From IMG/VR virus record IMGVR_UViG_3300037010_003043, positions 1 through 64,000 of that record: 64,000 bases of DNA; one strand, given 5' to 3'. Each line of letters opens with the position of its first letter. Position 1 is the first letter of the stretch. A program made the position numbers and the translations under genes. Below, piece after piece: positions 1,723-59,182 of the stretch. Origin of the DNA: a virus. Below the pieces are notes generated by a model. That model had not been told where the DNA came from. It saw only the letters and a list, made by a program, of their open reading frames with translations, and did no database searches.

Positions 1723-2628
1723 TTATTTTTGAGAATTATCTTCGGCAGCATCTTCTTTTTCAAACTCTGCATTAATTCTTTCAATATCATCGTTATCTAA
1801 AGATAGATTTTTAGCTTCAAAATCTTTATATCTTTTATGCAATCTTTGACCTTTATCACTTAAAGAATATACTTTCTCACCTAATTCTTTATCAAATTTT
1901 GATCTAATATATTGTTTATTATTAATTAACCAAGACGAATTAGGTCTTTTACCAACTTCTTCATCTAATAAAGAAAAATATTCTTTCAATTTTGAAGCAG
2001 TAGCGCTGCCTTCTGTTGCCAAAAATTCCAATACTTTACTCCTAACAACAGAACCAGTATACGCATGTTTTTGCGGATATTTTTCAGTATACTTTCTTTT
2101 GGCAACTATTTTTGATTCATTCACAAATTGTGAATAAGTTAAAAATTCATTTTTTTCCATTTTATTTAAATTATTTTGTTTTTTATGTCTTTTATATTTT
2201 TTATCATCTTCGTTATCATCATCTTCGTCATCATTATTATCAATAATATCATCGTAATTTTTTACCTTTTTTCTTCTATGAATTGAATTATCCCATCTAT
2301 CACCAGATCCAGAAAATTCACTACCATGACCCATTGATTGAGCAGCCATCCTTACAGGACCTTGTCCATTTACATTTCCCATCGATACCGTGTCAGATGC
2401 ACCCGATGAAAATGTATCTTCCCATACCTTTTGAAGGTTTAATTTATTTAAATATTCTTTGTATTTAGAATAAGCATCTTTTTTAATACTAAATTCGTCA
2501 TAAATTTCTAATTCATTATTATCGTCTGAATAAAAATAACTTATATTATTTTGGTCCATCCAATTTAAAAATGTCTGTAACAATGCTTTATCTATATTTT
2601 CTATATTATAAACTATACCTTCATCCAT
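1723..2628 (-). CDS. Hypothetical protein with acidic linker and winged-helix-like C-terminus
   Basis: 301 residues in three parts. Residues 1-70 form a small alpha/beta region. Residues 72-155 are low complexity: a Gly/Ser/Met segment, then a very acidic D/N/E run at about 125-145, then a basic patch. From residue 157 the text restarts with MEKNEFLTYSQFVNES, which looks like the N-terminus of T4 capsid-targeted proteins, and residues 195-270 read like a winged helix (VLEFLATEG, then KLKEYF, then VYSLSDKGQRL). The ATG at 2628 has AAGGAG at good spacing and overlaps the upstream gene by 16 bases. An internal start at residue 157 is possible. Role unknown; an internal head protein is a guess. 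Confidence 0.6.
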   Translation of the reverse strand: MDEGIVYNIENIDKALLQTFLNWMDQNNISYFYSDDNNELEIYDEFSIKKDAYSKYKEYLNKLNLQKVWEDTFSSGASDTVSMGNVNGQGPVRMAAQSMGHGSEFSGSGDRWDNSIHRRKKVKNYDDIIDNNDDEDDDNEDDKKYKRHKKQNNLNKMEKNEFLTYSQFVNESKIVAKRKYTEKYPQKHAYTGSVVRSKVLEFLATEGSATASKLKEYFSLLDEEVGKRPNSSWLINNKQYIRSKFDKELGEKVYSLSDKGQRLHKRYKDFEAKNLSLDNDDIERINAEFEKEDAAEDNSQK

Positions 2629-4427
2629 AGATTGCTCCTTAAATACTCAAAATATTTATACATTTTTTCTGGTACATATTTTCTATAAGTTAAAAGATCG
2701 TTTGTCTTTATTGCATTTTGTATTATTTTTGAAATACCTACAACTTCTAATTTTTCAATTTGTCGTAAACTTAAATTATAATTTATATATTTCAAAAATA
2801 CTTTCAAAAAATCAATATAATTCTTGTTTGCTAAAATTATATTTATTTTAAATTTATCTATTAATTTTTGTAATTCTGGAATTAAATCTAATGATTCAAT
2901 AACTTCATAACCAGCTATATAATCACTATATTCGTTTGATATTTCGTTCATAATTTTTATAGAAACATCAAAAGATATTGGATTAATATCGTTAATCTTT
3001 CCATTAAATACTTGAATTATTATTACTTTTTTCTTTGTAGTTTCTACAATTTTTTTAATATTTTCTAAATGATTTATATTAAAAGGTTGAAATTTACCTA
3101 TAATTATATTTAATTCTTTTTTATTTTTTTCTAAATTACTTTGTTTTTCAGTTTTTTGCATATATTTTTGCCAAAATATAATATTATCACTTTCAAAATT
3201 TTCATTTATTAAATTATTATTATTATAATCTTCGTTGACTATATTTAAATTTAAAAATTCAGAAAATGTTTCAATCACAGACTTTTCATTATTATTTTGT
3301 ATTGAATTTTTTATTAAATCAACTATTTCGTTAAAAAATCTTACTATTTCTGTATTATTTAAAAATCCTGTTATTTGCTTTTTCTTTTTTCTAAACGATC
3401 CAACAAATAATTTAAAAATATCTTTATTAACATCGTTTATTGTTAAAAATTTCTGTGTTGTTTTATTTTTAATAAAATAAAAATTAATATCAAATTTTAA
3501 CGATTTTAATAAAGCTGATGTCGACAAATTAACACCTTTTAACTTTGATATATTTTTCTTTATAAATATATTAAATAAATTAGACATTAATTCTAAATAT
3601 TTTTCATCTTCATCGATTTCTTTATACTTAAACGTTTTTATATATTCTTTATATGATTGCATAAATTCAATCATATAAATTAAAACAATAGGAATATAAT
3701 CGTTTATTTCATTTGAGTTATTTTTTTTAATAATTTCGTTAAACATAGGATCTACTATCTTAGCATAAATTTTTCCTTCATCACCATCAAATTGAAATAT
3801 TACACCTGGTATTAATTTATCAATAGAATCATTTAAAGTTGTTTTTTTTAACTTTTCATTTGCAATAGATATTAAAAAAGCTGTAAAACTATTTACTTTA
3901 TATTTTTGTAAAATTTCTTTAGGTGATAACTTTAAATATTCTAATATTTTTGTTTTTTGTTCTTCTGAAAATTCTCCTTGAAATAAAATAGGAGGTTCAG
4001 AAACATTTAACATTTTAGCATATTTAATAAGAATATCTTTATTTGTTATTAAATTTCTACCTTTTTTGATATACGACAATATCAAATTGTTTTTGGGTAC
4101 AGTATCATATTTAATATAATTAGGAACTGTATCAGGAAAATATTCAAATCCAAAAACTAAATTTTCTTCTATTTTTGACAAAATCAAATCTTGAATACTT
4201 TCAATATATGAAATTGCATTTTCATAATACTTCATTAATGCTCTATCAACTTTTGTAATTAACGATTCTGTATTACCTTTGTAAAAATAAATTTTTTTAT
4301 TTTTTACTTCAAACGAAAAATCACTACCAGCTAATTTTTCATAAATAGTTACTTTTTTATTTAAAAGAGCTTTTAGAAACTCTTCGCCTTTATTATTATA
4401 CAATTCTGATAAATCTAATATTGCCAT
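2613..4427 (-). CDS. Cytidylyltransferase-fold protein with degenerate active-site motifs
   Basis: 604 residues. The last 166 residues carry the signature of the HxGH nucleotidyltransferase superfamily: a beta strand LNIII, then GKFQPFNINH at 444-453 where active enzymes have G-F-P-H-x-G-H, and near the end VVGISKIIQNAI where active enzymes have I-S-x-T-x-x-R. Both motifs are altered (first His lost, Arg lost), so catalysis is doubtful. The middle has GVIFQFDG and KIVDPMF, a domain often seen with this fold in marine T4-like phages. The first 300 residues are not recognised. It overlaps the next gene downstream by 16 bases. Its role is unknown; NAD or nucleotide metabolism is unlikely if the motifs are really dead. 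Confidence 0.6.
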   Translation of the reverse strand: MAILDLSELYNNKGEEFLKALLNKKVTIYEKLAGSDFSFEVKNKKIYFYKGNTESLITKVDRALMKYYENAISYIESIQDLILSKIEENLVFGFEYFPDTVPNYIKYDTVPKNNLILSYIKKGRNLITNKDILIKYAKMLNVSEPPILFQGEFSEEQKTKILEYLKLSPKEILQKYKVNSFTAFLISIANEKLKKTTLNDSIDKLIPGVIFQFDGDEGKIYAKIVDPMFNEIIKKNNSNEINDYIPIVLIYMIEFMQSYKEYIKTFKYKEIDEDEKYLELMSNLFNIFIKKNISKLKGVNLSTSALLKSLKFDINFYFIKNKTTQKFLTINDVNKDIFKLFVGSFRKKKKQITGFLNNTEIVRFFNEIVDLIKNSIQNNNEKSVIETFSEFLNLNIVNEDYNNNNLINENFESDNIIFWQKYMQKTEKQSNLEKNKKELNIIIGKFQPFNINHLENIKKIVETTKKKVIIIQVFNGKINDINPISFDVSIKIMNEISNEYSDYIAGYEVIESLDLIPELQKLIDKFKINIILANKNYIDFLKVFLKYINYNLSLRQIEKLEVVGISKIIQNAIKTNDLLTYRKYVPEKMYKYFEYLRSNLWMKV

Positions 4428-4938: not shown

Positions 4939-6234
4939 TTACGATACTGTATATGTTATTCGTTTATTTTTATCTTTTTTTCCTTTTTTATTTCCATTTT
5001 TATCATAACCATCTTTATTATAACCATTTTCATCGTAACCATCGCGATCATAACCTTCTTTATTATAACCAAAATCATTATAACCTTCTATATCCCAACC
5101 ATATTGATCATAACCATTACGATCATAACCGTTACGGTCATAACCATCACGATCATAACCCTCTTTGTCATAACCATTACGATCATAACCCTCTGGATCA
5201 TAACCATCATAATTATAACCATCACGATCATAACCCTCTTCATCATAACCATCACGATCATAACCATTTTCGTCATAATTATCGTATCGTTTAAATCTAC
5301 CATCTGTCTTTTCTAATACATAAACATCAAAAGCATCTTTAAACTCAGAAAAAGGGTTATTAACATAAGAATGTAAAATAGATTTATTTCCATAAATTAC
5401 TAAATATTTAAAAGTATCCATATATGGGTATTCAAGTTTAGATGCATTTTTTACATTTACAAATGGAACTTCAACTTGTAGATCAATATTAGGATCTAAC
5501 TTTTCTTTAAAAAAATCATGTAATTTAAATCTATTTTGTGCTTCTTTTAACATAATCATTTTAATATCATTATCTATAGCATATCTTCTATCTAAATATA
5601 ATCCTTTATTTGTTTTCCATAACAACACTCTAGCTATAGTTTTATTTTCTTCATTAGTCTTTAAAAACAGTTTAACGTTTTTATTTTCTGCATAAAATTT
5701 TAAAAAATCTTGAGTATAAAAATATGACATACAAGAGTTACCCAATTCTCCTGCTTTTACCATATTTTTTTCATGATAATAATATAAAATATCTTTACCT
5801 TCAACAAGTTTAAAAGATAGATCTTCGCCCATTTGAATCATCTTTAAACTATTTGTAAAATCTGCAAGTTCATCGGGCTTTAATCTTAAATTTTTTAACA
5901 AAACTTGTACTAATTTACCAATTTTAATTTCTTGTTTAACTTTTTTACCATTAGGTTTCATTATAATAATCTCTAAAAAACCAGGCTTTTTTGATAAATC
6001 AATTGATTCTATATCACTTATTGATTTATCGTCATCAAGTTCTAAAACTGTAGACTCTATATCTTTTTGAATTAATTCAATAATAGAATCAATTATTTTT
6101 TTTCTTTTAGGATTTCCTGGTGATACTTGAAGCTCCTTAATTGCCTTTTCAAAATCAGTTTCAATTACAATCTTTTTTTCAAGTATATTAGATATAGATT
6201 CAAGAAGCATATATTCGTCGTAAGTTAAAATCAT
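4939..6234 (-). CDS. Repeat-tailed family protein, copy 1
   Basis: First of seven tandem paralogs (431 residues). Residues 1-315 are the conserved core. It begins MILTYDEYMLLESI, similar to capsid-targeting N-termini of T4-like head proteins. Other landmarks are KKPGFLEIII (82-91), ILYYYHEKNM (149-158), GELGNSCMS (162-170) and LLWKTNKGLYLDRRYAI (204-220). Residues 318-418 are about 18 units of G-Y-D-x-x, acidic and Tyr-rich, then a basic tail ending KNKRITYTVS that other copies lack. The nearly invariant Cys in NSCMS and the DRRYA motif suggest a specific fold, but I know no enzyme with this pattern. A TATAAATA element lies just upstream at 6248-6255. Confidence 0.8.
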   Translation of the reverse strand: MILTYDEYMLLESISNILEKKIVIETDFEKAIKELQVSPGNPKRKKIIDSIIELIQKDIESTVLELDDDKSISDIESIDLSKKPGFLEIIIMKPNGKKVKQEIKIGKLVQVLLKNLRLKPDELADFTNSLKMIQMGEDLSFKLVEGKDILYYYHEKNMVKAGELGNSCMSYFYTQDFLKFYAENKNVKLFLKTNEENKTIARVLLWKTNKGLYLDRRYAIDNDIKMIMLKEAQNRFKLHDFFKEKLDPNIDLQVEVPFVNVKNASKLEYPYMDTFKYLVIYGNKSILHSYVNNPFSEFKDAFDVYVLEKTDGRFKRYDNYDENGYDRDGYDEEGYDRDGYNYDGYDPEGYDRNGYDKEGYDRDGYDRNGYDRNGYDQYGWDIEGYNDFGYNKEGYDRDGYDENGYNKDGYDKNGNKKGKKDKNKRITYTVS

Positions 6235-6247
6235 AATTTCTATATTT

Positions 6248-6255
6248 TATTTATA
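6248..6255 (-). promoter_or_regulatory. Putative T4-type late promoter element TATAAATA
   Basis: The minus strand reads TATAAATA here, identical to the T4 late promoter core recognised by gp55 sigma. It lies 14 bases above the ATG of copy 1 at 6234 and in the spacer after copy 2. In so AT-rich a genome, chance occurrence is possible, but the same octamer occurs before the amidoligase and the 62356 gene. Confidence 0.4.
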
Positions 6256-6287
6256 TTTTTTGTTTTTTTATTTTTATCTTTATCGTA

Positions 6288-7445
6288 TCAATCTTCTTCT
6301 CTATCATAATCGTATCTTCTATTTCCATATCTATCATATCCATTTTCATCATATCCATCTTGATCATAACCTTCTGAATCATAACCATATTCGTTATGTC
6401 CACTTCTATCATATCCATCTCTATCATATCCATCTCTATCATATCCATCTCTATCATATCCATTACGATCATAACCTTCTTCGTCATATCCTTCTACATC
6501 TTCAAATCCACCATTTGCGTTTTCTAATCTATAAATATCAATAATACCATCCTTTTCTAAAAAAGCAGTTTCTCTATCAGAATGTAAAATAGATTTATTA
6601 TTATAAATCACTAAATATTTAAAAGTATCCATATATGGATATTTGAATTTAGGTGCATTTTTTTCATTTATAAATGAAACTTCAACTTGTGCATTAAAAT
6701 CAAAATTATATTTTTCTTTGAAAAAATCATATAATTTAAATCTATTTTGTGCTTCTTTAAATAAAGCTAATTGAAGATCATTGTTAATTGCATATCTTCT
6801 GTCTAAATATAATCCTTTATTTGTTTTCCATAACAACGCTCTAGCTATAGTTTTATTTTCTTCATTAGTCTTTAAAAACAATTTAACATTTTCGTTTTTT
6901 GCATAAAATTCTAAAAATTTTTGAGTATAATCACGTGACATACAAGAATCACCTAGTTCTCCAACTTTTATCATATTTTTCGGATTATAATAATACAAAA
7001 TATCTTCACCTTCAACAAGTTTAAAAGATGGATCTTCGCCCATTTGAATCATCTTTAAACTATTTGTAAAATCTGCAAGTTCATCAGGCTTTAATCTTAA
7101 ATTTTTTAATAAAGTTTGTATTAATTTACCAATTTTAATTTCTTGTTTAACTTCTTTACCATTAGGTTTCGTTATAATAATCTCTAAAAAACCAGGTTTT
7201 TTTGACAAATCAATTGAATTTATATTTTCTATTGCTTTATCATCGTCAAGTTCTAAAACCACATCCTCAATATCTCTTTGAATCAATTCAACAATAGAAT
7301 CAATTATTTTTTTTCTTTTAGGATTTCCTGGTGATACTTGAAGCTCCTTAATTGCCTTTTCAAAATCAGTTTCAATTACAATCTTTTTTTCAAGTATATT
7401 AGATATAGACTCAAGAAGCATATATTCATTGTAAGTTAAAATCAT
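6288..7445 (-). CDS. Repeat-tailed family protein, copy 2
   Basis: 385 residues. The core matches copy 1 throughout (MILTYNEYMLLESI start; GELGDSCMS; RALLWKTNKGLYLDRRYAI). The tail from about residue 317 has roughly 11 G-Y-D-x-x units including one G-H-N variant, then ends RRYDYDREED, so the terminus differs from the K-D-G-N-x-K-D-S end of copies 4 and 6. It lacks the TATAAATA element of copy 1, and reading it as co-transcribed with its neighbours is simplest. Function unknown. Confidence 0.8.
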   Translation of the reverse strand: MILTYNEYMLLESISNILEKKIVIETDFEKAIKELQVSPGNPKRKKIIDSIVELIQRDIEDVVLELDDDKAIENINSIDLSKKPGFLEIIITKPNGKEVKQEIKIGKLIQTLLKNLRLKPDELADFTNSLKMIQMGEDPSFKLVEGEDILYYYNPKNMIKVGELGDSCMSRDYTQKFLEFYAKNENVKLFLKTNEENKTIARALLWKTNKGLYLDRRYAINNDLQLALFKEAQNRFKLYDFFKEKYNFDFNAQVEVSFINEKNAPKFKYPYMDTFKYLVIYNNKSILHSDRETAFLEKDGIIDIYRLENANGGFEDVEGYDEEGYDRNGYDRDGYDRDGYDRDGYDRSGHNEYGYDSEGYDQDGYDENGYDRYGNRRYDYDREED

Positions 7446-7485
7446 AATTTTAATTTATTTTTTAACTATCTTTTTTATTTTAATC

Positions 7486-8586
7486 TCAGTCATATTCTTC
7501 ATCATCATTTTCATCTCTATAATTTCCATCTCTATCATATCCATCACTATCATAACCTTCCATATCATAACCTTCTCTATCATAACCTTCCATATCATAA
7601 CCATCTTCATCATAACCTTCATTATCGTATCCTTCTGTGTCTTTAAATCCTCCTCTTGTATCTTCTAACGTATAAATATCAAAAGCACTATTTTTTTCTA
7701 AAAAAGCAGCTTCTTTATTAGAATATAAAATAGATTTATTATTATAAATTACTAAATATTTAAAAGTATCCATATATGGGTACTTAAAATTATATGCATT
7801 ATTTTCATTTATAAACGAAACTTCAACTTGTGCATCAAAATCAAAATTGTATTTTTCTTTAAAAAAATCATGTAATTTAAATCTATTTTGTACTTCTTTA
7901 AATAAAGTTAATTGAAGATCATTGTTAATTGCATATCTTCTGTCTAAATATAATCCTTTATTTGTTTTCCATAATAACACTCTAGCTATAGTTTTATTTT
8001 CTTCATTAGTCTTTAAAAACAATTTAACGTTTTCATTTTTTGCATAAAATTCTAGAAATTTTTGAGTATTAGGATGCGACATACAAGAATTGCCCAATTC
8101 TCCTGTTTTTACCATATTATTTGGATGATAATAGTATAAAATATCTTCGCCTTCAACAAGTTTAAAAGATGGATCTTCACCCATTTGAATCATTTTTAAA
8201 CTATTTGTAAAATCTGCAAGCTCATCAGGTTTTAATCTTAAATTTTTTAATAAAGTTTGTATTAATTTACCAATTTTAATTTCTTGTTTAACTTCTTTAC
8301 CATTAGGTTTCGTTATAATAATCTCTAAAAAACCAGGCTTTTTTGATAAATCAATTGATTCTATATCACTTATTGATTTATCGTCATCAAGTTCTAAAAC
8401 TGTAGACTCTATATCTTTTTGAATTAATTCAATAATAGAATCAATTATTTTTTTTCTTTTAGGATTTCCTGGTGATACTTGAAGCTCCTTAATTGCCTTT
8501 TCAAAATCAGTTTCAATTACAATCCTTTTTTCAAGTATATTAGATATAGACTCAAGAAGCATATATTCATCGTAAGTTAAAATCAT
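7486..8586 (-). CDS. Repeat-tailed family protein, copy 3 (short tail)
   Basis: 366 residues and the shortest complete tail: about 7 G-Y-D-x-x units, several with Met-Glu in the variable pair (G-Y-D-M-E), then an acidic end NDDEEYD. The core is nearly identical to copy 1 in its first 130 residues, including the region around LELDDDKSISDIES, pointing to recent duplication or gene conversion. NSCMSHPNTQ and LDRRYAI motifs are intact. Function unknown. Confidence 0.8.
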   Translation of the reverse strand: MILTYDEYMLLESISNILEKRIVIETDFEKAIKELQVSPGNPKRKKIIDSIIELIQKDIESTVLELDDDKSISDIESIDLSKKPGFLEIIITKPNGKEVKQEIKIGKLIQTLLKNLRLKPDELADFTNSLKMIQMGEDPSFKLVEGEDILYYYHPNNMVKTGELGNSCMSHPNTQKFLEFYAKNENVKLFLKTNEENKTIARVLLWKTNKGLYLDRRYAINNDLQLTLFKEVQNRFKLHDFFKEKYNFDFDAQVEVSFINENNAYNFKYPYMDTFKYLVIYNNKSILYSNKEAAFLEKNSAFDIYTLEDTRGGFKDTEGYDNEGYDEDGYDMEGYDREGYDMEGYDSDGYDRDGNYRDENDDEEYD

Positions 8587-8601
8587 TGTTTTATATTATT
8601 T

Positions 8602-9921
8602 TTAACTATCTTTTTCATTTCCATCTTTATCGTAACCATCTTCATCGTATCCGTCTTTATCATAACCGTCTCTGTCAAAATCTTCTCTATCATAACCATC
8701 TCTATCATAACCATCTCTATCATAACCATCTCTATCATAACCATTCCAGTTATATCCATCTCTATCATATCCATCTATATCATGACCATCTTCGTTATAA
8801 CCATCACGATCATAACCACCTAAATCATATCCATTTTCATCATATCCATCTTCATCAAAACCTTCTCTATCATAACCATCACTATCATAACCAAACATAT
8901 TATAACCTTCTCTATCATAACCTTCTGCATCATAACCTTCTGCATCATAACCTTCATCGTCATATCCTTCTATATCTTCAAATCCACCATTTGTACTTCC
9001 TAATATATAAATATTAAAAGCATTCTTTTTTTCTAAAAAGGCAACTTCTCTATCAGAATGTAAAATAGATTTATTATTATAAATTACTAAATACTTAAAA
9101 GTATCCATATATGGGTATTCAAATTTAGATATATTTTTTTCATTTATAAATGGAACTTCAACTTGTACATTAAAATGAATATCATCTTTCTCTTTAAAAA
9201 AGTCATGTAACTTAAATCTATTTTGTGCTTCTTTTAATATAGCTAATTGAAGATCATTGTTGATTGCATATCTTCTGTCTAAATACAATCCTTTATTTGT
9301 TTTCCATAATAACGCTCTAGCTATAGTTTTATTTTCTTCATTAGTCTTTAAAAACAATTTAACATTTTCATTTTTTGCATAAAATTCTAAAAATTTTTGT
9401 GTATAATCATGTGACATACAAGAATTACCCAATTCTCCAGTTTTTACCATATTCTTTGGATGATAATAATATAAAATATCTTCACCTTCAACAAGTTTAA
9501 AAGATGGATCTTCGCCCATTTGAATCATCTTTAAACTATTTGTAAAATCTGCAAGTTCATCAGGCTTTAATCTTAAATTTTTCAACAGAACTTGTACTAA
9601 TTTACCAATTTTAATTTCTTGTTTAACTTCTTTGCCATTAGGTTTAGTTATAATAATCTCTAAGAAACCAGGCTTTTTTGATAAATCAATTGATTCTATA
9701 TCACTGATTGATTTATCATCATCAAGTTCTAAAACTGTAGACTCTATATCTTTTTGAATTAATTCAATAATAGAATCAATTATTTTTTTTCTTTTAGGAT
9801 TTCCTGGTGATACTTGAAGCTCCTTAATTGCCTTTTCAAAATCAGTTTCAATTACAATCTTTTTTTCAAGTATATTAGATATAGACTCAAGAAGCATATA
9901 TTCATCGTAAGTTAAAATCAT
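8602..9921 (-). CDS. Repeat-tailed family protein, copy 4 (long tail)
   Basis: 439 residues with a tail of about 23 units that includes variants G-F-D, G-H-D and D-F-D, and ends DGNEKDS. The first 130 residues are almost the same as copies 1 and 3. The core motifs GELGNSCMSHDYTQ and RALLWKTNKG are intact. The gene downstream begins only 15 bases after its stop. Function unknown. Confidence 0.8.
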   Translation of the reverse strand: MILTYDEYMLLESISNILEKKIVIETDFEKAIKELQVSPGNPKRKKIIDSIIELIQKDIESTVLELDDDKSISDIESIDLSKKPGFLEIIITKPNGKEVKQEIKIGKLVQVLLKNLRLKPDELADFTNSLKMIQMGEDPSFKLVEGEDILYYYHPKNMVKTGELGNSCMSHDYTQKFLEFYAKNENVKLFLKTNEENKTIARALLWKTNKGLYLDRRYAINNDLQLAILKEAQNRFKLHDFFKEKDDIHFNVQVEVPFINEKNISKFEYPYMDTFKYLVIYNNKSILHSDREVAFLEKKNAFNIYILGSTNGGFEDIEGYDDEGYDAEGYDAEGYDREGYNMFGYDSDGYDREGFDEDGYDENGYDLGGYDRDGYNEDGHDIDGYDRDGYNWNGYDRDGYDRDGYDRDGYDREDFDRDGYDKDGYDEDGYDKDGNEKDS

Positions 9922-9940
9922 TGTTTTATGTTATTTTTTT

Positions 9941-10072
9941 TTAACTATCTTTTTTATTTCCATCTTTATCATAATCATATTCGTTGTATCCATTTACTAT
10001 CATATCCATTTGGATCATATCCATCTCTATTATATCCATCTATCTCTATCATAATCATATCTATCATAACTA
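9941..10072 (-). pseudogene. Frameshifted remnant of the repeat tail of copy 5
   Basis: Below the stop of copy 5 the minus strand still encodes broken pieces of the tail, each in a different frame: a YDRYDYDRD-like piece, then DGYNRDGYDPNGYDS, then NGYNEYDYDKDGNKKDS and a TAA at 9941. The last piece matches the normal C-terminus of other copies (DGN-x-KDS). At least three single-base indels separate the pieces, so the tail decayed after it was once intact. Confidence 0.75.
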
Positions 10073-11035
10073 TCTATCAGCTCGTCTAAATTTACCATCT
10101 GTATTTCCTAATATATAAATATCAAAAGCATCTTCAAGTTTATAAAAAGCATAGTCATCATTAACATGAGAACGTAAAATAGATCTATCTTCATAAATTA
10201 CTAAATACTTAAAAGTATCCATATATGGATATTCAAATTTAGATGCATTTTTTGCATTTATAAATGGAACCTCAACTTGTAGATCAATATTGCGATCTAA
10301 TTTTTCTTTAAAAAAGTCATACAATTTAAATCTATTTTGTGCTTCTTTTAATATAGCTATTTGAAGATCATTGTCTATAGCATATCTTCTATCTAAATAT
10401 AACCCTTTATCCGTTTTCCATAATAACGCTCTAGCTATAGTTTTATTTTCTTCATTAGTTTTTAAAAATAGTTTTACATTTTTATTATTTGCATAAAATT
10501 CTAGAAATGTTTGAGTATTATCATGTGACATACAAGAATTACCTAAATTACCTGCTTTTACCATATTTTTTGGATGGTAATAATACAAAATGTTTTCACG
10601 ATCAATAAGTCTAAAAGATGGATCTTCACCTATTTGAATTATCTTTAAACTATTTGTAAAATCCTCGAGTTCATCAGGCTTTAATTTTAAACTTTTTAAT
10701 AAAGTTTGTATTAATTTACCAATCTTAATTTCTTGTTTAACTTCTTTGCCATTAGGCTTAGTTATAATAATTTCTAAAAAACCAGGTTTTTTTGACAAAT
10801 CAATTGATTTTATGTCATTTATTGCTTTATCGTCATCAAGTTCTAAAACTGCAGATTCTATATCTCTTTGAATCAATTCAACAATAGAATCAATTATTTT
10901 TTTTCTTTTAGGATTTCCTGGCGAAACTTGAAGCTCTTTGATTGCTTTTTCAAAATCATCTTCAATTGCAATTTTTTTTTCGAATATATTAGATATAGAC
11001 TCAAAAAGCATATATTCGTCATAAGTTAAAATCAT
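10070..11035 (-). CDS. Repeat-tailed family protein, copy 5 (tail lost)
   Basis: 321 residues: a full core and then an early stop at RRADR. It starts MILTYDEYMLFESISNIFEKK and keeps GNLGNSCMSHDNTQ and RALLWKTDKGLYLDRRYAI. The core is not visibly damaged, so a tail-less protein may still be made. The DNA after the stop carries the shifted remains of its repeat tail (9941-10072). This copy shows that core and tail evolve separately. Confidence 0.75.
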   Translation of the reverse strand: MILTYDEYMLFESISNIFEKKIAIEDDFEKAIKELQVSPGNPKRKKIIDSIVELIQRDIESAVLELDDDKAINDIKSIDLSKKPGFLEIIITKPNGKEVKQEIKIGKLIQTLLKSLKLKPDELEDFTNSLKIIQIGEDPSFRLIDRENILYYYHPKNMVKAGNLGNSCMSHDNTQTFLEFYANNKNVKLFLKTNEENKTIARALLWKTDKGLYLDRRYAIDNDLQIAILKEAQNRFKLYDFFKEKLDRNIDLQVEVPFINAKNASKFEYPYMDTFKYLVIYEDRSILRSHVNDDYAFYKLEDAFDIYILGNTDGKFRRADR

Positions 11036-11051
11036 AGTTTTATTTTATTTT

Positions 11052-12386
11052 TTAACTATCTTTTTCATTTCCATCTTGATCATATCCGTCTTTATCATAC
11101 CCATCTTCATCATAACCATCTTCATTGTAACCATCTTCGTCGTAGCCATCTTCGTCATATCCATCTTCATTATATCCATTTTTATCGTAACCCTCTCTAT
11201 CATATCCATATTCGTCATATCCATCTTCATCATATCCATCTTCATCATAACCATCTCTATTATAACCTTCTCTATTATAATCACCTTCATCATAACCATC
11301 TCTATCATAACCGTTTCTATCATAACCATCTTCGTTATAACCATCTTCATCATAACCATATCTATCGTAACCATCGTTATCAAATCCATCTTTATTATAT
11401 CCATCACCGTCATATCCATCTTCATCGAAACCATTAGAATCTTCAAATCCTCCTTTTGTACTTTCTAATGTATAAACGTCAAAAATACCGCTTTTTTCGG
11501 AATAAGCAGCATATTTACTAGAATATAAAATAGAATCATTATCGGAAATCATTAAATATTTAAAAGTATCCATATATGGGTATTCAAATTTAGGTGCATT
11601 TTTTTCACTTATAAATGAAACTTCAACTTGCAAATCAATATTAGGATCTAATTTTTCTTTAAAAAAATCATGTAATTTAAATCTATTTTGTGCTTCTTTT
11701 AGTATTACTAATTGAAGATCATTGTCTATAGCATATCTTCTATCTAAATATAATCCTTTATTTGTTTTCCATAACAGCGCTCTAGCTATAGTTTTATTTT
11801 CTTCATTAGTCTTTAAAAATAATTTAACATTTTTATTTTCTGCATAAAATTTTAAAAATTTTTGTGTATTATCATATGACATACAAGAATTGCCTAAATT
11901 ACCTGTTTTTACCATATTCTTTGGATGATAATAATACAAAATATCTTCACCTTCAACAAGTTTAAAAGATGGATCTTCACCCATTTGAATCATTTTTAAA
12001 CTATTTGTAAAATCTGCAAGTTCATCAGGCTTTAATCTTAAATTTTTCAACAGAATTTGTACTAATTTACCAATTTTAATTTCTTGTTTAACTTCTTTGC
12101 CATTAGGTTTAGTTATAATAATTTCTAAAAAACCAGGTTTTTTAGATAAATTAATTGAATTTATATTTTCTATTGCCTTATCGTCATTAAGTTCTAAAAC
12201 TGTAGACTCTATATCTCTTTGAATTAATTCAACAATAGAATCAATTATTTTTTTTCTTTTAGGATCACCTGGCGAAATTTGAAGCTCCTTAATTGCTTTT
12301 TCAAAATCATCTTCAATTATAATCTTTTTTTCAAATATATTAAATATAGACTCAAGAAGTGTATATTCGCCATAAGTTAAAATCAT
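11052..12386 (-). CDS. Repeat-tailed family protein, copy 6 (longest tail)
   Basis: 444 residues with about 24 G-Y-D/N-x-x units, many with E-D in the variable pair, ending DQDGNEKDS. The core shows more change at its N-terminus (MILTYGEYTLLESIFNIFEKK) than copies 1 to 4, and groups with copy 7 by SINLSKKPGF and SNGFD at the start of the tail. Motifs GNLGNSCMSYDNTQ and LDRRYAI are intact. The tail is strongly acidic overall. Function unknown. Confidence 0.8.
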   Translation of the reverse strand: MILTYGEYTLLESIFNIFEKKIIIEDDFEKAIKELQISPGDPKRKKIIDSIVELIQRDIESTVLELNDDKAIENINSINLSKKPGFLEIIITKPNGKEVKQEIKIGKLVQILLKNLRLKPDELADFTNSLKMIQMGEDPSFKLVEGEDILYYYHPKNMVKTGNLGNSCMSYDNTQKFLKFYAENKNVKLFLKTNEENKTIARALLWKTNKGLYLDRRYAIDNDLQLVILKEAQNRFKLHDFFKEKLDPNIDLQVEVSFISEKNAPKFEYPYMDTFKYLMISDNDSILYSSKYAAYSEKSGIFDVYTLESTKGGFEDSNGFDEDGYDGDGYNKDGFDNDGYDRYGYDEDGYNEDGYDRNGYDRDGYDEGDYNREGYNRDGYDEDGYDEDGYDEYGYDREGYDKNGYNEDGYDEDGYDEDGYNEDGYDEDGYDKDGYDQDGNEKDS

Positions 12387-12403
12387 TATTTTATATTATT
12401 TTT

Positions 12404-13678
12404 TTATTGCTTTTTTTTGTTTCCATTTTTATCATATCCTTTATAATCATATCCATCTTCGTCATATCCATCTCTATCATACCCATAATCATCATATCCA
12501 TCTCTATCATATTCATCTCTATCATATCCATCAATATCATATCCATCTTTATCATATCCATCTTTATCGTATCCATCTTTATCGTATCCATCTTTATCGT
12601 ATCCTTTATAATCATATCCATCATCGTCAAATCCATCACGATTATGCCCATATTCGTCATAACCATCTCTATCATAACCATCTTTATCATATCCATCAAG
12701 ATCATAACCATCAGCATCAAAACCATTAGACCCTTCAAATCTTCCCTCTGTACTTTCTAATTTATAAATATCATAAGCATAACCTCTTTGTGAATAAGCA
12801 ACTTCTTTATTAGAATATAAAATAGAATTATTATCAAAAATTGTTAAATATTTAAAAGTATCCGTATATGGGTACTTAAATTTAGATGCATTTTTTGCAT
12901 TTATAAATGAAACTTCAATTTGTAGATCAACATTAGGATCTAATTTTTCTTTAAAAAAATCATATAACTTAAATCTATTTTGTGCTTCTTTTAACATAAC
13001 CATTTGAAGATTGTTGTCTATAGCATATCTTCTATCTAAATATAATCCTTTATTTGTTTTCCATAACAACGCTCTAGCTATAGTTTTATTTTCTTCGTTA
13101 GTCTTTAAAAACAATTTAACATTTTTATTTTCTGCATAAAATTCTAGAAATTTTTGTGTATTAAGATGTGACATACAAGAATTACCCAGTTCTCCAGCTT
13201 TTACCATATTTTTTGGATGATAATAATATAAAATATCTTCACCTTCAACAACTTTAAAGGACGGGTCTTCGCCTATTTGAATCATCTTTAAACTATTTGT
13301 AAAATCTGCAAGTTCATCAGGTTTTAATCTTAAATTTTTCAATAAAGTTTGTATCAATTTACCAATCTTAATTTCTTGTTTAACTTCTTTGCCGTTAGGC
13401 TTAATTATAATAATTTCTAAAAAACCTGGTTTTTTAGATAAATTAATTGAATTTATATTTTCTATTGCCTTGTCATCATCAAGTTCTAAAACTGCAGATT
13501 CTATATCTCTTTGAATCAATTCAACAATAGAATCAATTATTTTTTTTCTTTTAGGATCACCAGGTGAAACTTGAAGCTCCTTGATTGCTTTTTCAAAATC
13601 AGCTTCAATTGCAATCTTTTTTTCGAGTATATTAGATATAGATTCAAGAAGCATATATTCGTCGTAAGTTAAAATCAT
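12404..13678 (-). CDS. Repeat-tailed family protein, copy 7 (first in transcription order)
   Basis: 424 residues, about 20 repeat units, including a run of four D-K-D-G-Y-type units and two Y-K-G-Y-D units, ending NGNKKKQ. It is the most upstream copy and its ATG overlaps the stop of the 52-residue gene at 13675-13833 (ATGA), so translation is probably coupled to that small gene. The core has GELGNSCMSHLNTQ and RALLWKTNKGLYLDRRYAI. Function unknown. Confidence 0.8.
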   Translation of the reverse strand: MILTYDEYMLLESISNILEKKIAIEADFEKAIKELQVSPGDPKRKKIIDSIVELIQRDIESAVLELDDDKAIENINSINLSKKPGFLEIIIIKPNGKEVKQEIKIGKLIQTLLKNLRLKPDELADFTNSLKMIQIGEDPSFKVVEGEDILYYYHPKNMVKAGELGNSCMSHLNTQKFLEFYAENKNVKLFLKTNEENKTIARALLWKTNKGLYLDRRYAIDNNLQMVMLKEAQNRFKLYDFFKEKLDPNVDLQIEVSFINAKNASKFKYPYTDTFKYLTIFDNNSILYSNKEVAYSQRGYAYDIYKLESTEGRFEGSNGFDADGYDLDGYDKDGYDRDGYDEYGHNRDGFDDDGYDYKGYDKDGYDKDGYDKDGYDKDGYDIDGYDRDEYDRDGYDDYGYDRDGYDEDGYDYKGYDKNGNKKKQ

Positions 13679-13915: not shown

Positions 13916-14779
13916 TTACAAATTTTCAGGTATCTCTAAATTAAATTCAATTAATTTAGATTTTATATTTTCTTTTATAGTTTCAATTTTCTTTTTAAAT
14001 TCAAAATTTTTTGAATTTATTATATTAAGACATTTTTCAAACGTAGAAACATCTTCAATTTTTATATTTTTTCCAAATACCATTTCAACAAATTCTTGTG
14101 GATTTGACGTTACTATTCTTTTTGAACTTTCTAAAATAATTGATTTTTTAAGAACACCATTTTTACCTTCAAATGTTTTACTTACAACGCCTACGCCTTC
14201 ACTGTGACTGTAATAATACTTTTGATATTCTTTAACTTTTTCATTTGTATCAAAATATGAAATTATTTTTCTATCTAACGACTCAACTAAAGCATGAAAA
14301 ACTGCTTCTCTATATTTTGAAGTATACTCAGATTCATTTTTTCTTAAATTTGGAGAATAACGTGAAAACTTAATCCATTCTAAATTCTCTACTAATTCTA
14401 AATGAATATCTACATTATTTTGTTTTTTAAAATTTCCATTTATTGGAAATTTAAATATAAACTTATTGTTTTCTTTTACAACTTTTATATTAATTCTTTT
14501 AAATTGCAATTGTATAAATTTTTCTAAATCTTCTAATTCAAGATTATTTTCTTTTAAAACATTATTTAAATCAACAGCGACATTTATATTATTACTTAAA
14601 TCTTCTGCTAATTTTTTCTTACCAGCAGATCCTATAAATGCAACATCATTTTCCGTTAATCTTAAAAGATTTAATATATTTTCTATTAATATTTTTTGAG
14701 TCTTTGGTACATCTTTTTGTTTAATCCCATTTGATATACTCAAAGACTCGTTTAAAAATTCAATATATGATTTTAACAT
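13916..14779 (-). CDS. Pol-beta-type nucleotidyltransferase-fold protein, catalytic residues lost
   Basis: 287 residues. It starts MLKSYIEFLNESLS, a capsid-targeting-like N-terminus. FIGSAGKKK at about 48-56 followed by SNNINVAVDL at 62-71 aligns with the pol-beta nucleotidyltransferase signature G-S...G-D-I-D-I-A-I-D found in T4-like phages of marine bacteria. Here both metal-binding Asp positions read Asn (Asn64, Asn66), so it is probably inactive as a transferase. The rest is alpha/beta with VDIHLELV near residue 124. It begins an apparent unit between the epimerase cluster and the paralog array. Fold call moderate; function unknown. Confidence 0.6.
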   Translation of the reverse strand: MLKSYIEFLNESLSISNGIKQKDVPKTQKILIENILNLLRLTENDVAFIGSAGKKKLAEDLSNNINVAVDLNNVLKENNLELEDLEKFIQLQFKRINIKVVKENNKFIFKFPINGNFKKQNNVDIHLELVENLEWIKFSRYSPNLRKNESEYTSKYREAVFHALVESLDRKIISYFDTNEKVKEYQKYYYSHSEGVGVVSKTFEGKNGVLKKSIILESSKRIVTSNPQEFVEMVFGKNIKIEDVSTFEKCLNIINSKNFEFKKKIETIKENIKSKLIEFNLEIPENL

Positions 14780-14805: not shown

Positions 14806-15201
14806 CTATTCTTCATCCATCAGTTTTTTAAATTCTTCTTTTTTTTCTTTAGCTTTTTCTTCTTTTTGTTTTTCTTTTTCCTCATCTGATAAAGTTGCAG
14901 GATTTTGTTTTATTAAATCATTTTCTTTAGCTTTTTTAATTTTATCAGCAATTTTAGGATCTTTAAAATTACCTGTATCTTTATTCCAGTTATCTTTTAA
15001 CCAATTAAAAAATTCAGTTTTATCATCTTTTGACAAATCACCAGGAGATTCTGCACCATATTTAGCTAATCCAAAAAGCATTAAATCTTGGTATCTTTTT
15101 TGTTTATCTGACAATTCCTTTTTTCCATCGTCGTCTTCCTCGAAAATTTCACCATAATAATTTTCGATAAGAAATTCATCATATGTTTTAAATTTTTTCA
15201 T
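14806..15201 (-). CDS. Lys/Glu-rich protein with capsid-targeting-like N-terminus
   Basis: 131 residues. The N-terminus MKKFKTYDEFLIENYYGE is close to the T4 internal-protein leader (M-K-T-Y-x-E-F-I-x-E). The centre has KTEFFNWLKDNWNKDTG, a short helical repeat-like region, and the C-terminal 45 residues are an almost pure K/E helix ending LMDEE. It may be an internal head or scaffold-associated protein by analogy with T4. No catalytic motif is visible. Confidence 0.6.
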   Translation of the reverse strand: MKKFKTYDEFLIENYYGEIFEEDDDGKKELSDKQKRYQDLMLFGLAKYGAESPGDLSKDDKTEFFNWLKDNWNKDTGNFKDPKIADKIKKAKENDLIKQNPATLSDEEKEKQKEEKAKEKKEEFKKLMDEE

Positions 15202-18907: not shown

Positions 18908-19935
18908 AGATAAATTAAATCTATTTTTTTAGAAGAAAAATATTTATCAAATTCAATTTTTTTGTACATTTCGTCAGGTAACTTTATAATCAATTCGTTT
19001 AAATCTTTAATTTTTTCATTTATATTTAAATCTTTTAATAATTTTTTCCAAAGAAAAACCTCTTCTCCATTTGACAGTAATTCAATTGATTTTTTCAAAC
19101 CTACTGTATCGTTATCTAAAAAATATCGTTTATTTTCAATATCTATTGGTAAAATTTTATTAACTCCACTTATTGCAATCGAATTATTTATAAAAATAGA
19201 ATCAAATGCACCTTCAAATATTGTTATTTTTTTATTAAAATCTATATTAAATATGTTAAAAATTGTTGATATATTATTTAAAAATTCAAAATCACTATCT
19301 ATTTCTATTTTAAGATCTTCTTTAATTTTAGAAAATTTATAAATATAATATTTTTTAAATTTACCTGTTGTTCTTTTTGAAAAACCTAAAACTTTATCGT
19401 TTACTAAATTTAATATAACAATACTTTTTGTAAATTCATCAAACACAAAATTTTCATATTGAAATATTTTTCTTTTATTTAAATAAGTTTTAAAATTAGT
19501 CGTCTCAATATCTTTAAAATTATAAAAATTTTTTATATCATTTTTTGATGGTAAATTTTTAGATAAAAAATCAAAATCTATTAAATTATATTTAACTTTC
19601 TTTTTTTCAAACTTATTTATAGATTCATATTCAAAAAATTCATTTTCATTTATAGAATTAAAATCTAAAAATAAATTTTTTATATTTTTATAAATACCGC
19701 AATTAAAACATTTATATTTTAAAGAATCTAAATATAAATTTCCTCTTTTTTTCTTTTCATCATTAGACGAATCACCACAATACGGACAAGCAAAACTTAT
19801 TCTATCATCATATATTACAATTCTTGTTTTTTCTCCTTGAAACCTTTTATTTAATATATTTTGTACTTTATCTAATAATTTAGAAAAAGAAGGGGCCGAA
19901 GCCCCTTTAAAATCAATTAAATCTATTTTACTCAT
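18904..19935 (-). CDS. DNA primase with zinc ribbon and TOPRIM domain (T4 gp61-like)
   Basis: 343 residues from the chosen ATG (T4 gp61 has 342). A zinc ribbon CPYC...CFNC lies near residues 50-80. IFEGAFDS and YFLDNDTVGLKK further on are the E and D-x-D motifs of the TOPRIM catalytic centre. It makes RNA primers for lagging-strand synthesis with the replicative helicase. The open frame extends to 19959 inside gp32; I chose ATG 19935 because ATGAGTAA there overlaps the gp32 stop. Codons 12-17 of this gene also form a terminator stem. Confidence 0.8.
   Translation of the reverse strand: MSKIDLIDFKGASAPSFSKLLDKVQNILNKRFQGEKTRIVIYDDRISFACPYCGDSSNDEKKKRGNLYLDSLKYKCFNCGIYKNIKNLFLDFNSINENEFFEYESINKFEKKKVKYNLIDFDFLSKNLPSKNDIKNFYNFKDIETTNFKTYLNKRKIFQYENFVFDEFTKSIVILNLVNDKVLGFSKRTTGKFKKYYIYKFSKIKEDLKIEIDSDFEFLNNISTIFNIFNIDFNKKITIFEGAFDSIFINNSIAISGVNKILPIDIENKRYFLDNDTVGLKKSIELLSNGEEVFLWKKLLKDLNINEKIKDLNELIIKLPDEMYKKIEFDKYFSSKKIDLIYL
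19890..19907 (-). terminator. UUCG-loop terminator for gp32, inside the primase coding region
   Basis: On the minus strand AAGGGGC, TTCG, GCCCCTT form a 7-bp GC-rich stem with a UUCG tetraloop followed by CTTTTTCT. It lies 21 bases below the gp32 stop and inside the primase reading frame, where it encodes GASA-P residues. T4 gene 32 also has strong termination just downstream. The GC content of this patch stands out against its surroundings. Confidence 0.75.
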
Positions 19936-20956
19936 TTTCATCTTCGTTAAACAAATCATCTAAATCATCTAAGTCATCTAAGTCATCTAAATCTTCGTCT
20001 ATTATTTTTTGTTTATTTTCAACGTCTTCTTTTTCTTTATTATTATCAAACTTTATATCTTCAAAATCGTCATCATAATTGTCAGGAACAAGTTCATTTT
20101 TTTTACCTTTTGATTTAACGTTTACTTTGTCTATAATTTCAGATTCGTTTAAAGTTTCTTTTGATTTTTTTAGAATTTCATTTATTAAATTTTGTGATGG
20201 AATATTTGCTTTAATATATTCAACGACTTTTTTTCTTGTTTCAGAATCCCATTCTTGATATTGATATGCATCTAAATCTGGTGAATTTTCTTTTAACCAA
20301 TTTGCCAATTTAAGCATATCGTTTTTTTCTTTTTTTATTATTTTACCATTAATTTCAAATTGATGTGATTTGTTTAAAAATTTAGATAACTTATAATTTG
20401 GAAAATTTCTACCATCTACATTAACTTCATTAACAACCAATTTAAATATTTTATTATTCATAATATCTAAAAAATTAATAGGCTCATCTGTATCTTGAGC
20501 TGCTCCTTCTAAAATATCAAATAACTGTTGTCCAAATTTGAAAATTTTTATTTTACCTTCCATTTCTGGTTGATGTTGATCTTGAACAATATAAATTAAC
20601 GCATAAATATCACGTTTTCTTTTAAAAAGATTTTGTAATTTTCTTTCGTTAGCATTTTGTGAATTTCTACAAGCAAAAAACGCATCTTGTAATAACGAAT
20701 GTTTTTTAACCGTCGAAGGACAATCTACACTCATTTTTTTATTATTTTTTATATCATCGATCCATACCGTCCATTTATCTACAATATGTAAAGAAGGATT
20801 TTTTGCATTAGGTAAAAATATAATTTGACTTGTATAAACTTTATCCACTCCTTTATCGGGCGTAGGTTTATAAAAAACGGTATCTTCAAATATTTCTTTT
20901 TTAGTAAAAAGATCACTTGCGTTTGTACTAAATATTTTATTTAATTCATCATCCAT
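19928..20956 (-). CDS. 32: Single-stranded DNA-binding protein, gp32-like
   Basis: 342 residues (T4 gp32: 301). The OB-fold core (about 25-210) shows FYKPTPD, VYTSQIIFLPN, a WTVWIDDI strand and KRKRDIYALIYIVQD. T4 gp32 uses His/Cys zinc ligands; here Cys79, His86 and Cys96 lie in the corresponding insert, so zinc binding may be altered. The C-terminal 35 residues are very acidic with four LDD units ending FNEDENE, the usual protein-interaction tail. It coats single-stranded DNA and recruits replication proteins. AAAGGAG precedes the ATG, and an unusual repeated leader lies upstream. Confidence 0.85.
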   Translation of the reverse strand: MDDELNKIFSTNASDLFTKKEIFEDTVFYKPTPDKGVDKVYTSQIIFLPNAKNPSLHIVDKWTVWIDDIKNNKKMSVDCPSTVKKHSLLQDAFFACRNSQNANERKLQNLFKRKRDIYALIYIVQDQHQPEMEGKIKIFKFGQQLFDILEGAAQDTDEPINFLDIMNNKIFKLVVNEVNVDGRNFPNYKLSKFLNKSHQFEINGKIIKKEKNDMLKLANWLKENSPDLDAYQYQEWDSETRKKVVEYIKANIPSQNLINEILKKSKETLNESEIIDKVNVKSKGKKNELVPDNYDDDFEDIKFDNNKEKEDVENKQKIIDEDLDDLDDLDDLDDLFNEDENE

Positions 20957-58258: not shown

Positions 58259-59182
58259 ATGTGCACAATTGTAGCAGCAACTCAAAATAATAAACATTTT
58301 TTATTTAAAAATAGAGACAAAAAAAATTATGGAACATTAAAAATAAAGCATGAAATAGTTAAAAATGTTGAAATTGCTTATTTAACTGATCAAACAGGCT
58401 GGGTAGAAGGTATGAACGAATTTGGTATTGGATTTATTTTTGCTTATTTAGAAAAAAAGGATTTTTCTAACGAAATGTATAAAATGGACTGGACTGTTAC
58501 AGAAACACCCAAAACTCATATAAATAAAAATTATAAATCTAAAATAGAAGATTTTAAAAAAATATTAACTTCTAAAACGTTAGAAGAAGCTAAAAATGTT
58601 ATAATATCAAATAAATGGAATGGTAATTATTTTGTATCAGATAGTGAAAAAACATATGAAATAGAATGTTTTTTAGGTGAAATAAAATATCAAGAAGTAA
58701 CATTTGATAAATTTATAAAATATAAAGTTAAAACAAATCATGGTATTTTAATACCTAACGCAGGCCATAAAAAAAATAGTCAATCTGTTGCTAGAGCTTC
58801 AACTGAAATAAGAAAACTGCAAGCTGAACAACAATTAATGGGATTTAAAAATTTTTCCGATTTGATTCAAAGAATGGGCCAACAAACATACGATCAAAGA
58901 AGTTCATTAAATATGTTTAGAACAGATGATTATGAAAGAACAGTAAGCCAAATGTTATTAAATTTAGATCAAAAAATATTAAATGTAATTATATATGAAG
59001 AAAACTCTGATTTTTTTGGTATAGAAAAACAAATACCCGAAAATAGAAATCCTAAAATCAAAATTATTATTAGAAAAAAGGAAGAATTTGAAAAAGATGA
59101 ATTTTTAAACTTTAAAATGAAAGAAGAAGATTTATTTTTTCAATGGAAAAATTTAAAACATTCAAAAGGTGAAAATTTTTAA
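58259..59182 (+). CDS. Ntn-hydrolase (acyltransferase/peptidase C45 or choloylglycine-hydrolase-like)
   Basis: 307 residues. It begins Met-Cys (MCTIVAATQ), so removal of Met would expose Cys2 as the N-terminal nucleophile. FKNRDKK (Arg19, Asp20) and GWVEGMNEFGIGFIFAYL (46-63) follow as in C45/CBAH-family linear amide hydrolases, and TNHGILIPNAG with SVARASTEIRKL later completes the pattern. It should cleave amide bonds of small or peptide substrates. It is alone on the plus strand, opposite to all neighbours, with its own promoter region, and its end overlaps the converging gene by 4 bases. Possible partner of the amidoligase. Confidence 0.75.
   Translation: MCTIVAATQNNKHFLFKNRDKKNYGTLKIKHEIVKNVEIAYLTDQTGWVEGMNEFGIGFIFAYLEKKDFSNEMYKMDWTVTETPKTHINKNYKSKIEDFKKILTSKTLEEAKNVIISNKWNGNYFVSDSEKTYEIECFLGEIKYQEVTFDKFIKYKVKTNHGILIPNAGHKKNSQSVARASTEIRKLQAEQQLMGFKNFSDLIQRMGQQTYDQRSSLNMFRTDDYERTVSQMLLNLDQKILNVIIYEENSDFFGIEKQIPENRNPKIKIIIRKKEEFEKDEFLNFKMKEEDLFFQWKNLKHSKGENF

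What the first reader, a model, noticed from the sequence alone, without database searches (positions are those of the whole stretch)
4939..13678. Seven tandem paralogs with conserved cores and hypervariable acidic Gly-Tyr-Asp repeat tails
Seen: seven co-oriented genes share about 315 core residues (NSCMS, LLWKTNKGLYLDRRYAI) and end in G-Y-D-x-x units numbering about 18, 11, 7, 23, 0, 24 and 20. The cores change little while tails vary in length and in the two x residues. The N-termini look like T4 head-targeting leaders. I know no described system with this layout. A gene family kept in seven copies by a compact phage, with tail length free to change in steps of five residues, looks like an arms-race or dosage-driven system, for example injected proteins against host defence or diverse binding modules.
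Basis: partly seen in the sequence, partly recalled or inferred. Interest (0 to 1): 0.9.

Follow-up and report, generated by a model that had tools for sequence, protein, structure and literature searches.

The report
Seven-copy phage head-protein family, repeat tails
A T4-like phage carries seven side-by-side copies of an undescribed protein that seems tagged for packing inside the virus head, each ending in a different number of five-letter repeats; relatives in the largest known phages are also multi-copy, which points to a widespread class of packaged and possibly injected proteins.

Summary
Seven minus-strand genes (4939-13678) share a core at about 80% identity and carry 18, 12, 8, 23, 0, 24 and 20 GYDxx units. 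The tail-less copy keeps a tail broken by frameshifts. The core matches no Pfam, PHROG, NCBIfam, PADLOC or PDB sequence, but defines a family of about 220 distinct phage proteins, with 7-13 copies in each of four 634-735 kb megaphages. The family has two forms. One carries a T4-type capsid-targeting leader and occurs in phages with T4-type Gp23 and S77 prohead protease (13 of 19 records). The other lacks the leader, often sits beside an M20/M42-like peptidase, and occurs in phages without that head (0 of 19). This phage has Gp23, S77 and leaders on all seven copies. Tails are exchanged across the family. Two related phages differ by exactly three GYD units, yet their tail is under purifying selection. 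The core is predicted to have a weakly GNAT-like fold. Best reading: head-packaged, probably ejected proteins with swappable repeat tails. Packaging is well supported by inference; effector activity and an arms race are not shown. The SPN3US and phiKZ head paralog families are the nearest known kind.

The parts
12404..13678 (-). copy 1: leader, core, 20 GYDxx units
11052..12386 (-). copy 2: leader, core, 24 units
10070..11035 (-). copy 3: leader and core, no in-frame tail; core still under purifying selection (dN/dS 0.16-0.23 against the other copies)
9922..10069 (-). degenerate tail of copy 3, fragments in three frames
8602..9921 (-). copy 4: leader, core, 23 units
7486..8586 (-). copy 5: leader, core, 8 units; tail end altered by a frameshift
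6288..7445 (-). copy 6: leader, core, 12 units; tail end altered by a frameshift
4939..6234 (-). copy 7: leader, core, 18 units, extra KKGKKDKNKRITYTVS end
13643..13678 (-). example of the N-terminal leader (copy 1): Y5..Y8, L10-x-E12 before S13, all invariant in the seven copies; candidate prohead-protease site
   Evidence: cleavage rule L/I-X-E from PMC9026906
12839..13393 (-). most conserved core segment (copy 1, about residues 96-280): invariant Y153, S167-C168, R202, W206, Y218, P270, D273; GNAT-like predicted topology
4994..5278 (-). GYDxx repeat array of copy 7 (15-bp units)
11053..11434 (-). GYDxx repeat array of copy 2 (15-bp units)
13916..14779 (-). upstream neighbour, unrelated 287-aa protein with the same kind of leader (YIEFLNE)
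14806..15201 (-). upstream neighbour, unrelated 131-aa protein with the same kind of leader (YDEFLIE)

Best explanation
The array encodes internal head proteins of a T4-like phage of, probably, a Bacteroidota host. Step 1 (supported by sequence statistics, not by experiment): an N-terminal capsid-targeting leader brings each copy into the prohead core, and the S77 protease cuts after L-x-E. Step 2 (inferred from T4 and giant-phage precedents): the mature proteins are ejected with the DNA. Step 3 (inferred, weak): the conserved core, a GNAT-like transferase-type fold with an invariant Cys, Arg, Trp and Tyr, acts on a host or phage partner. Step 4 (inferred): the exchangeable C-terminal repeat tail (GYDxx here, CxxCxGxG in many relatives) is a binding module whose length changes by whole units through repeat slippage or unequal crossing-over. 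Tandem duplication with recombination between copies raises dose and gives a set of tail lengths.
For: Leader: 86/207 family N-termini against 66/2552 other ORFs, 1.1 by shuffling; 9/61 genes in this genome, 0.36 by shuffling. Y5, Y8, L10 and E12 are invariant in all seven copies. The motif matches residues mapped in T4 IPIII (4 and 7 targeting, 8 and 10 processing; PMC9026906) and the L/I-X-E rule. This genome has Gp23 (2.5e-39) and Peptidase_S77 (2e-13), both above Pfam cut-offs. Leader-bearing records have Gp23 in 13/19 and S77 in 13/19; leader-less records 0/19 and 0/19 (Fisher 1e-5). On the tree the window copies lie on the leader-less side (0 of 39 others carry a leader), so they appear to have gained the leader separately, in a T4-type-head phage. 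Multi-copy and tandem state recurs: 13, 13, 8 and 7 copies in megaphages and four-gene arrays 7-12 kb from S77 and Gp23. Core fold: pLDDT 86, pTM 0.79; top PDB neighbours nearly all GNAT, FemX, NMT or ATE1. Tails swapped among core relatives. Tail under purifying selection with an exact 45-bp length difference. Mosaic similarity among the copies.
Against: No virion proteomics. The window leader has one residue more between the second aromatic and L-x-E than the T4 type. Counts of relatives are not phylogenetically independent. No Foldseek PDB hit reaches E 0.001 and the canonical GNAT acetyl-CoA loop is absent, so enzymatic activity is open. Many relatives lack the leader and go with a peptidase, so the core has a role outside heads. 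Six leader-bearing records show no Gp23 (fragments). One copy has lost its tail and two have frameshifted tail ends.
Confidence: 0.55

Rival explanations
1. The copies are structural fillers or assembly factors of the prohead core (like the scaffold and internal proteins that T4 uses for shape), not effectors. The acidic tails simply provide bulk and charge in the head, and copy number sets the dose.
For: Head-gene association and leaders; acidic tails, net charge -12 to -44; T4 IPIII affects head assembly (PMC9026906).
Against: The core keeps invariant Cys, Arg, Trp and Tyr across phages with and without T4 heads and is under purifying selection, which suggests a specific activity. Leader-less forms exist outside heads.
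Confidence: 0.2
2. The proteins act inside the infected cell and are not packaged: an enzyme that works with an M20/M42-like peptidase, as the leader-less relatives in Cellulophaga phages suggest; the window leader is coincidence.
For: An M20/M42-like peptidase gene lies next to the family gene, same strand, -160 to +57 bp, in 42 loci of unrelated phages; the window copies branch on that side of the tree.
Against: No such peptidase is found in the window. All seven copies and both upstream neighbours carry leaders, none of the 39 tree neighbours do, and the phage has the matching protease.
Confidence: 0.15
3. The GYD tail is an acidic rod (pentapeptide-type solenoid) that mimics DNA and blocks DNA-binding host enzymes; tail length tunes the target.
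For: AlphaFold2 gives the tail high confidence (pLDDT about 94) with bridges spaced about 20 residues, four units per turn; tails are strongly acidic.
Against: AlphaFold2 is known to predict confident but false beta-solenoids for near-perfect repeats (PMC11795689). No solenoid hit in the PDB search. Higher-order repeat periods differ between copies (30, 45, 60, 75 bp), which does not fit a fixed four-unit turn. The pattern is not the A(D/N)LXX consensus.
Confidence: 0.07
4. The tandem array and tail changes are mostly neutral amplification by recombination and slippage, without a selected role for copy number or tail length.
For: Frameshifted tails in copies 3, 5 and 6; GYD-like repeats occur on many unrelated phage proteins.
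Against: Purifying selection on all cores including copy 3 and on the tail in a related pair; recurrence of multi-copy arrays in other phages.
Confidence: 0.1

Closest known systems
SPN3US / phiKZ head paralog families A (PF12699) and B (PMC5694885)
   Same: Many paralogs in one large phage, head-located, copy number varies between phages (2-7 and 2-20), conserved N-terminus on family A, cut by a T4-type prohead protease.
   Different: No sequence match to PF12699 or any Pfam family; different core; repeat tails swapped between relatives; leaders of T4 L-x-E type.
T4 internal proteins IPI-IPIII and Alt
   Same: Short N-terminal capsid-targeting leader with spaced aromatics and an L/I-X-E cut; T4-type capsid and protease in the same genome.
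   Different: Core unrelated by sequence; seven tandem copies; long C-terminal repeats; packaging not demonstrated.
GNAT superfamily and its FemX, NMT, ATE1 branches, including phage effectors such as phiKMV Rac (PMC7824862)
   Same: Predicted topology; most of the top fold neighbours belong here.
   Different: No significant hit; no Q/RxxGxG/A acetyl-CoA loop (two residues between strand 211-219 and helix 222-235); no sequence match.
DnaJ / BSD2 CxxCxGxG cysteine-rich repeats
   Same: Tail of about 25 family relatives, with a varying number of units.
   Different: Not present on the window copies, which carry GYDxx instead.
Pentapeptide-repeat proteins (Qnr, MfpA)
   Same: Five-residue period, acidic, solenoid predicted by AlphaFold2.
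   Different: Consensus differs and the prediction may be an artefact.

Membership tests
T4-type capsid-targeted internal head protein | N-terminal leader with spaced aromatics ending in L/I-X-E | tested here: met
   Y5, Y8, L10, E12 invariant in seven copies; motif enrichment; one-residue longer spacing than the T4 type
T4-type capsid-targeted internal head protein | T4-type prohead protease and Gp23 capsid in the same phage | tested here: met
   PF03420 2e-13 and PF07068 2.5e-39 in the 70-kb record, outside the window
T4-type capsid-targeted internal head protein | presence and cleavage in the virion | not testable with these tools
   needs virion mass spectrometry
SPN3US/phiKZ paralog family A (PF12699) | sequence match to PF12699 | tested here: not met
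   no Pfam match at E up to 1 for the window copies; no PF12699 among matches of 35 family relatives
GNAT acetyltransferase | significant fold or sequence match | tested here: inconclusive
   best PDB fold hits are GNATs but E >= 3.8e-3, TM <= 0.23 on query; no sequence match
GNAT acetyltransferase | Q/RxxGxG/A acetyl-CoA loop between strand 4 and helix 3 | tested here: not met
   alignment and model: two-residue connection, no such motif
pentapeptide-repeat protein | A(D/N)LXX consensus | tested here: not met
   units are G[YF][DN]xx; no Pfam match
known anti-phage defence or counter-defence family | match to PADLOC models | tested here: not met
   no hit; PADLOC covers defence systems, few counter-defence proteins

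The most novel reading that the evidence does not exclude
A previously undescribed, phage-wide family of transferase-like proteins exists in two forms: a cytoplasmic form coupled to an M20/M42-like peptidase, and a head-packaged, injected form that has expanded into recombining multi-copy sets with exchangeable repeat tails in T4-like phages and megaphages.
Probability: 0.3. Interest if true: 0.8.

Novelty: new variant of a known kind. Interest (0 to 1): 0.62.

Why it matters
Head-packaged proteins are the first phage proteins a cell can meet, and outside T4, phiKZ and SPN3US few families are known. This one is widespread, multi-copy in the four 634-735 kb megaphages tested, and absent from the annotation libraries tested. 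Its single-copy relative sits beside a peptidase gene in cultivated Cellulophaga phages (phi38:1, phi40:1, Calle), so the core's activity can be tested in the laboratory now. The exact three-unit tail difference between related phages makes length evolution of the repeat directly measurable.

Tried and rejected
Pfam, PHROGs, NCBIfam, PADLOC and PDB sequence searches for the core: nothing significant. Arms-race selection: not supported by dN/dS. GYD repeat as unique to this system: rejected, because a pattern scan found GYD-type repeats on many unrelated phage proteins. Close relatives in bacterial genomes: none found with these patterns; the two later pattern hits are chance matches in unrelated genes. 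Further copies of the window-type core in IMG/VR: only L294. AlphaFold2 solenoid for the tail: not trusted, for the published reason.
Full report
OBSERVATION. Seven minus-strand genes at 4939-13678 share a core at about 80% identity and differ in the number of GYDxx units: 18, 12, 8, 23, 0, 24 and 20 in coordinate order. The copy without a tail (10070-11035) is followed by 148 bp that still encode tail fragments in three frames, ending in the KDGNKKDS peptide resembling the ends of other tails. Its tail was lost by frameshifts, while its core still shows purifying selection (dN/dS 0.16-0.23). Copies 5 and 6 also have out-of-frame tail remnants after their stops. Which copy is the closest relative changes along the gene (for example copies 4, 5 and 7 are 99% identical over residues 1-70 but 84-88% over residues 211-280), so the copies have recombined with each other.

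CONTEXT. The record is a linear 70,131-bp virus fragment, G+C 23% in the window. Beyond the window it encodes Gp23 (PF07068, 2.5e-39) and the prohead protease (PF03420, 2e-13), and inside it a gp32-like protein: a T4-like head. Its Gp23 is closest to that of a 462-kb uncultured phage and of the Prevotella Lak phages, so a Bacteroidota host is likely (inference).

LEADER. T4 internal proteins enter the head through a short N-terminal leader; in IPIII residues 4 and 7 matter for targeting and 8 and 10 for processing, and gp21 cuts after L/I-X-E (PMC9026906). In all seven copies Y5, Y8, L10 and E12 are invariant. The stricter motif [YF]xx[FY][ILV]xE is in 86 of 207 distinct family N-termini outside the window against 66 of 2552 other ORFs from the same loci, with 1.1 expected by shuffling. 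In this genome a slightly relaxed motif, needed because the window leader is one residue longer, is found in 9 of 61 genes against 0.36 expected; copy 2 misses it only by a Thr. The two genes directly upstream (13916-14779, 14806-15201), unrelated in sequence, also have it. Relatives are not independent samples, so the p-values are indicative only.

FAMILY. The core matches no family in Pfam, PHROGs, NCBIfam or PADLOC at a convincing level, and no PDB sequence. Relatives are single-copy in Cellulophaga phages phi38:1, phi40:1 and Calle, and multi-copy in the 634-735 kb phages (13, 13, 8 and 7 matches), the largest genomes of the Mahaphage clade, predicted to infect Bacteroidetes (PMC7162821). 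IMG/VR scans gave about 155 further loci; large contigs hold 2-8 copies, some in four-gene tandem arrays. A tree of 192 cores puts the seven window copies in one clade with L294 (support 99).

TWO FORMS. An M20/M42-like peptidase gene (weak Pfam hits 2e-4 to 9e-4) lies next to the family gene on the same strand, from overlapping by 160 bp to 57 bp apart, in 42 loci of clearly different phages. None of the 89 members with the strict leader is so coupled; one coupled megaphage member (L024) has a relaxed leader. Leader-bearing records have Gp23 in 13 of 19 and S77 in 13 of 19 (S77 below Pfam's cut-off but 2-4 kb from Gp23); leader-less records have 0 of 19 for both (Fisher 1e-5). The four-gene arrays of W02, G018 and G019 lie 7-12 kb from S77 and Gp23. 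The window copies sit on the leader-less side of the tree, where 0 of 39 others have a leader; having one in a phage with the matching head suggests a separate recruitment into the head.

FOLD. AlphaFold2 on 109 window and IMG/VR sequences gives pLDDT 86 and pTM 0.79. Top PDB neighbours of two models are mostly GNAT, FemX, NMT and ATE1-like, but none reaches E 0.001. The acetyl-CoA loop that defines GNATs is missing. So: GNAT-like topology, not a shown acetyltransferase. Invariant residues Y153, S167, C168, R202, W206, Y218, P270 and D273 could form a site, but I could not inspect coordinates.

TAIL. Relatives replace the GYD tail with CxxCxGxG repeats of 5-20 units (25 proteins, 20 with leader), LIM-like, acidic or other modules. 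GYD-type repeats also occur on many unrelated phage proteins. Two related small phage contigs of another type, L294 and L257 (88-94% nucleotide identity), carry the GYD tail with 16 and 13 units, an exact 45-bp difference, and the aligned tail has dN 0.048 and dS 0.61, like neighbouring genes. So the tail sequence is selected while its length varies. L294's core is 73% identical to that of copy 4, so the gene has moved between unlike phages. AlphaFold2 folds the full tail at pLDDT about 94, but confident false solenoids are documented for near-perfect repeats (PMC11795689), so I give this little weight.

MECHANISM. Shown: copy number, selection, leader enrichment, head-gene association, tail exchange and unit-wise length change. 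Inferred: packaging and cleavage (about 0.7 in my judgement), ejection (0.55), transferase-like action (0.3), tail as binding module (0.4). Known parallel: SPN3US head paralog families A and B, with 2 and 20 members, family A being cut, abundant ejection proteins (PMC5694885). The present family is unrelated in sequence, so it is a new variant of that kind.

Noticed in passing
window 49084-49672 (gene 48983-51433); L009 27660-30293: A 42-bp tandem array of 14 copies (14-residue unit SETPVNNSITKxxL) in an 816-aa gene of the tail gene cluster; a megaphage gene in a similar cluster has its own repeats (VNPVKNFKYVNPNED).
   Followed up: no
L008, L010, L092, L118 and about 38 other loci: Conserved gene pair of the core family with a diverged M20/M42-like metallopeptidase in phages without a T4-type head.
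   Followed up: partly
L210 5688-10820; L298; L205; L245: GYDxx-type repeats on many unrelated phage proteins, including one with over 100 units and a contig with several short GYD proteins.
   Followed up: partly
L294 3-776 and L257 1-228: Small phages with a different head type carry a near relative of the window gene with GYD tail at a contig edge; likely horizontal transfer.
   Followed up: partly
window 2613-4427: 604-aa protein with a nicotinamide-nucleotide adenylyltransferase-like C-terminal domain (phrog_395 7.7e-9) just downstream of the array.
   Followed up: no
window 58259-59182: The only long plus-strand gene in an otherwise minus-strand window; no Pfam match.
   Followed up: no
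window 19928-20956: gp32-like DNA-binding protein (PF08804) with a DDL-repeat acidic end.
   Followed up: no
L063, L049, L026: CxxCxGxG arrays of up to about 20 units on core relatives, the longest found here on a megaphage protein (L026).
   Followed up: partly
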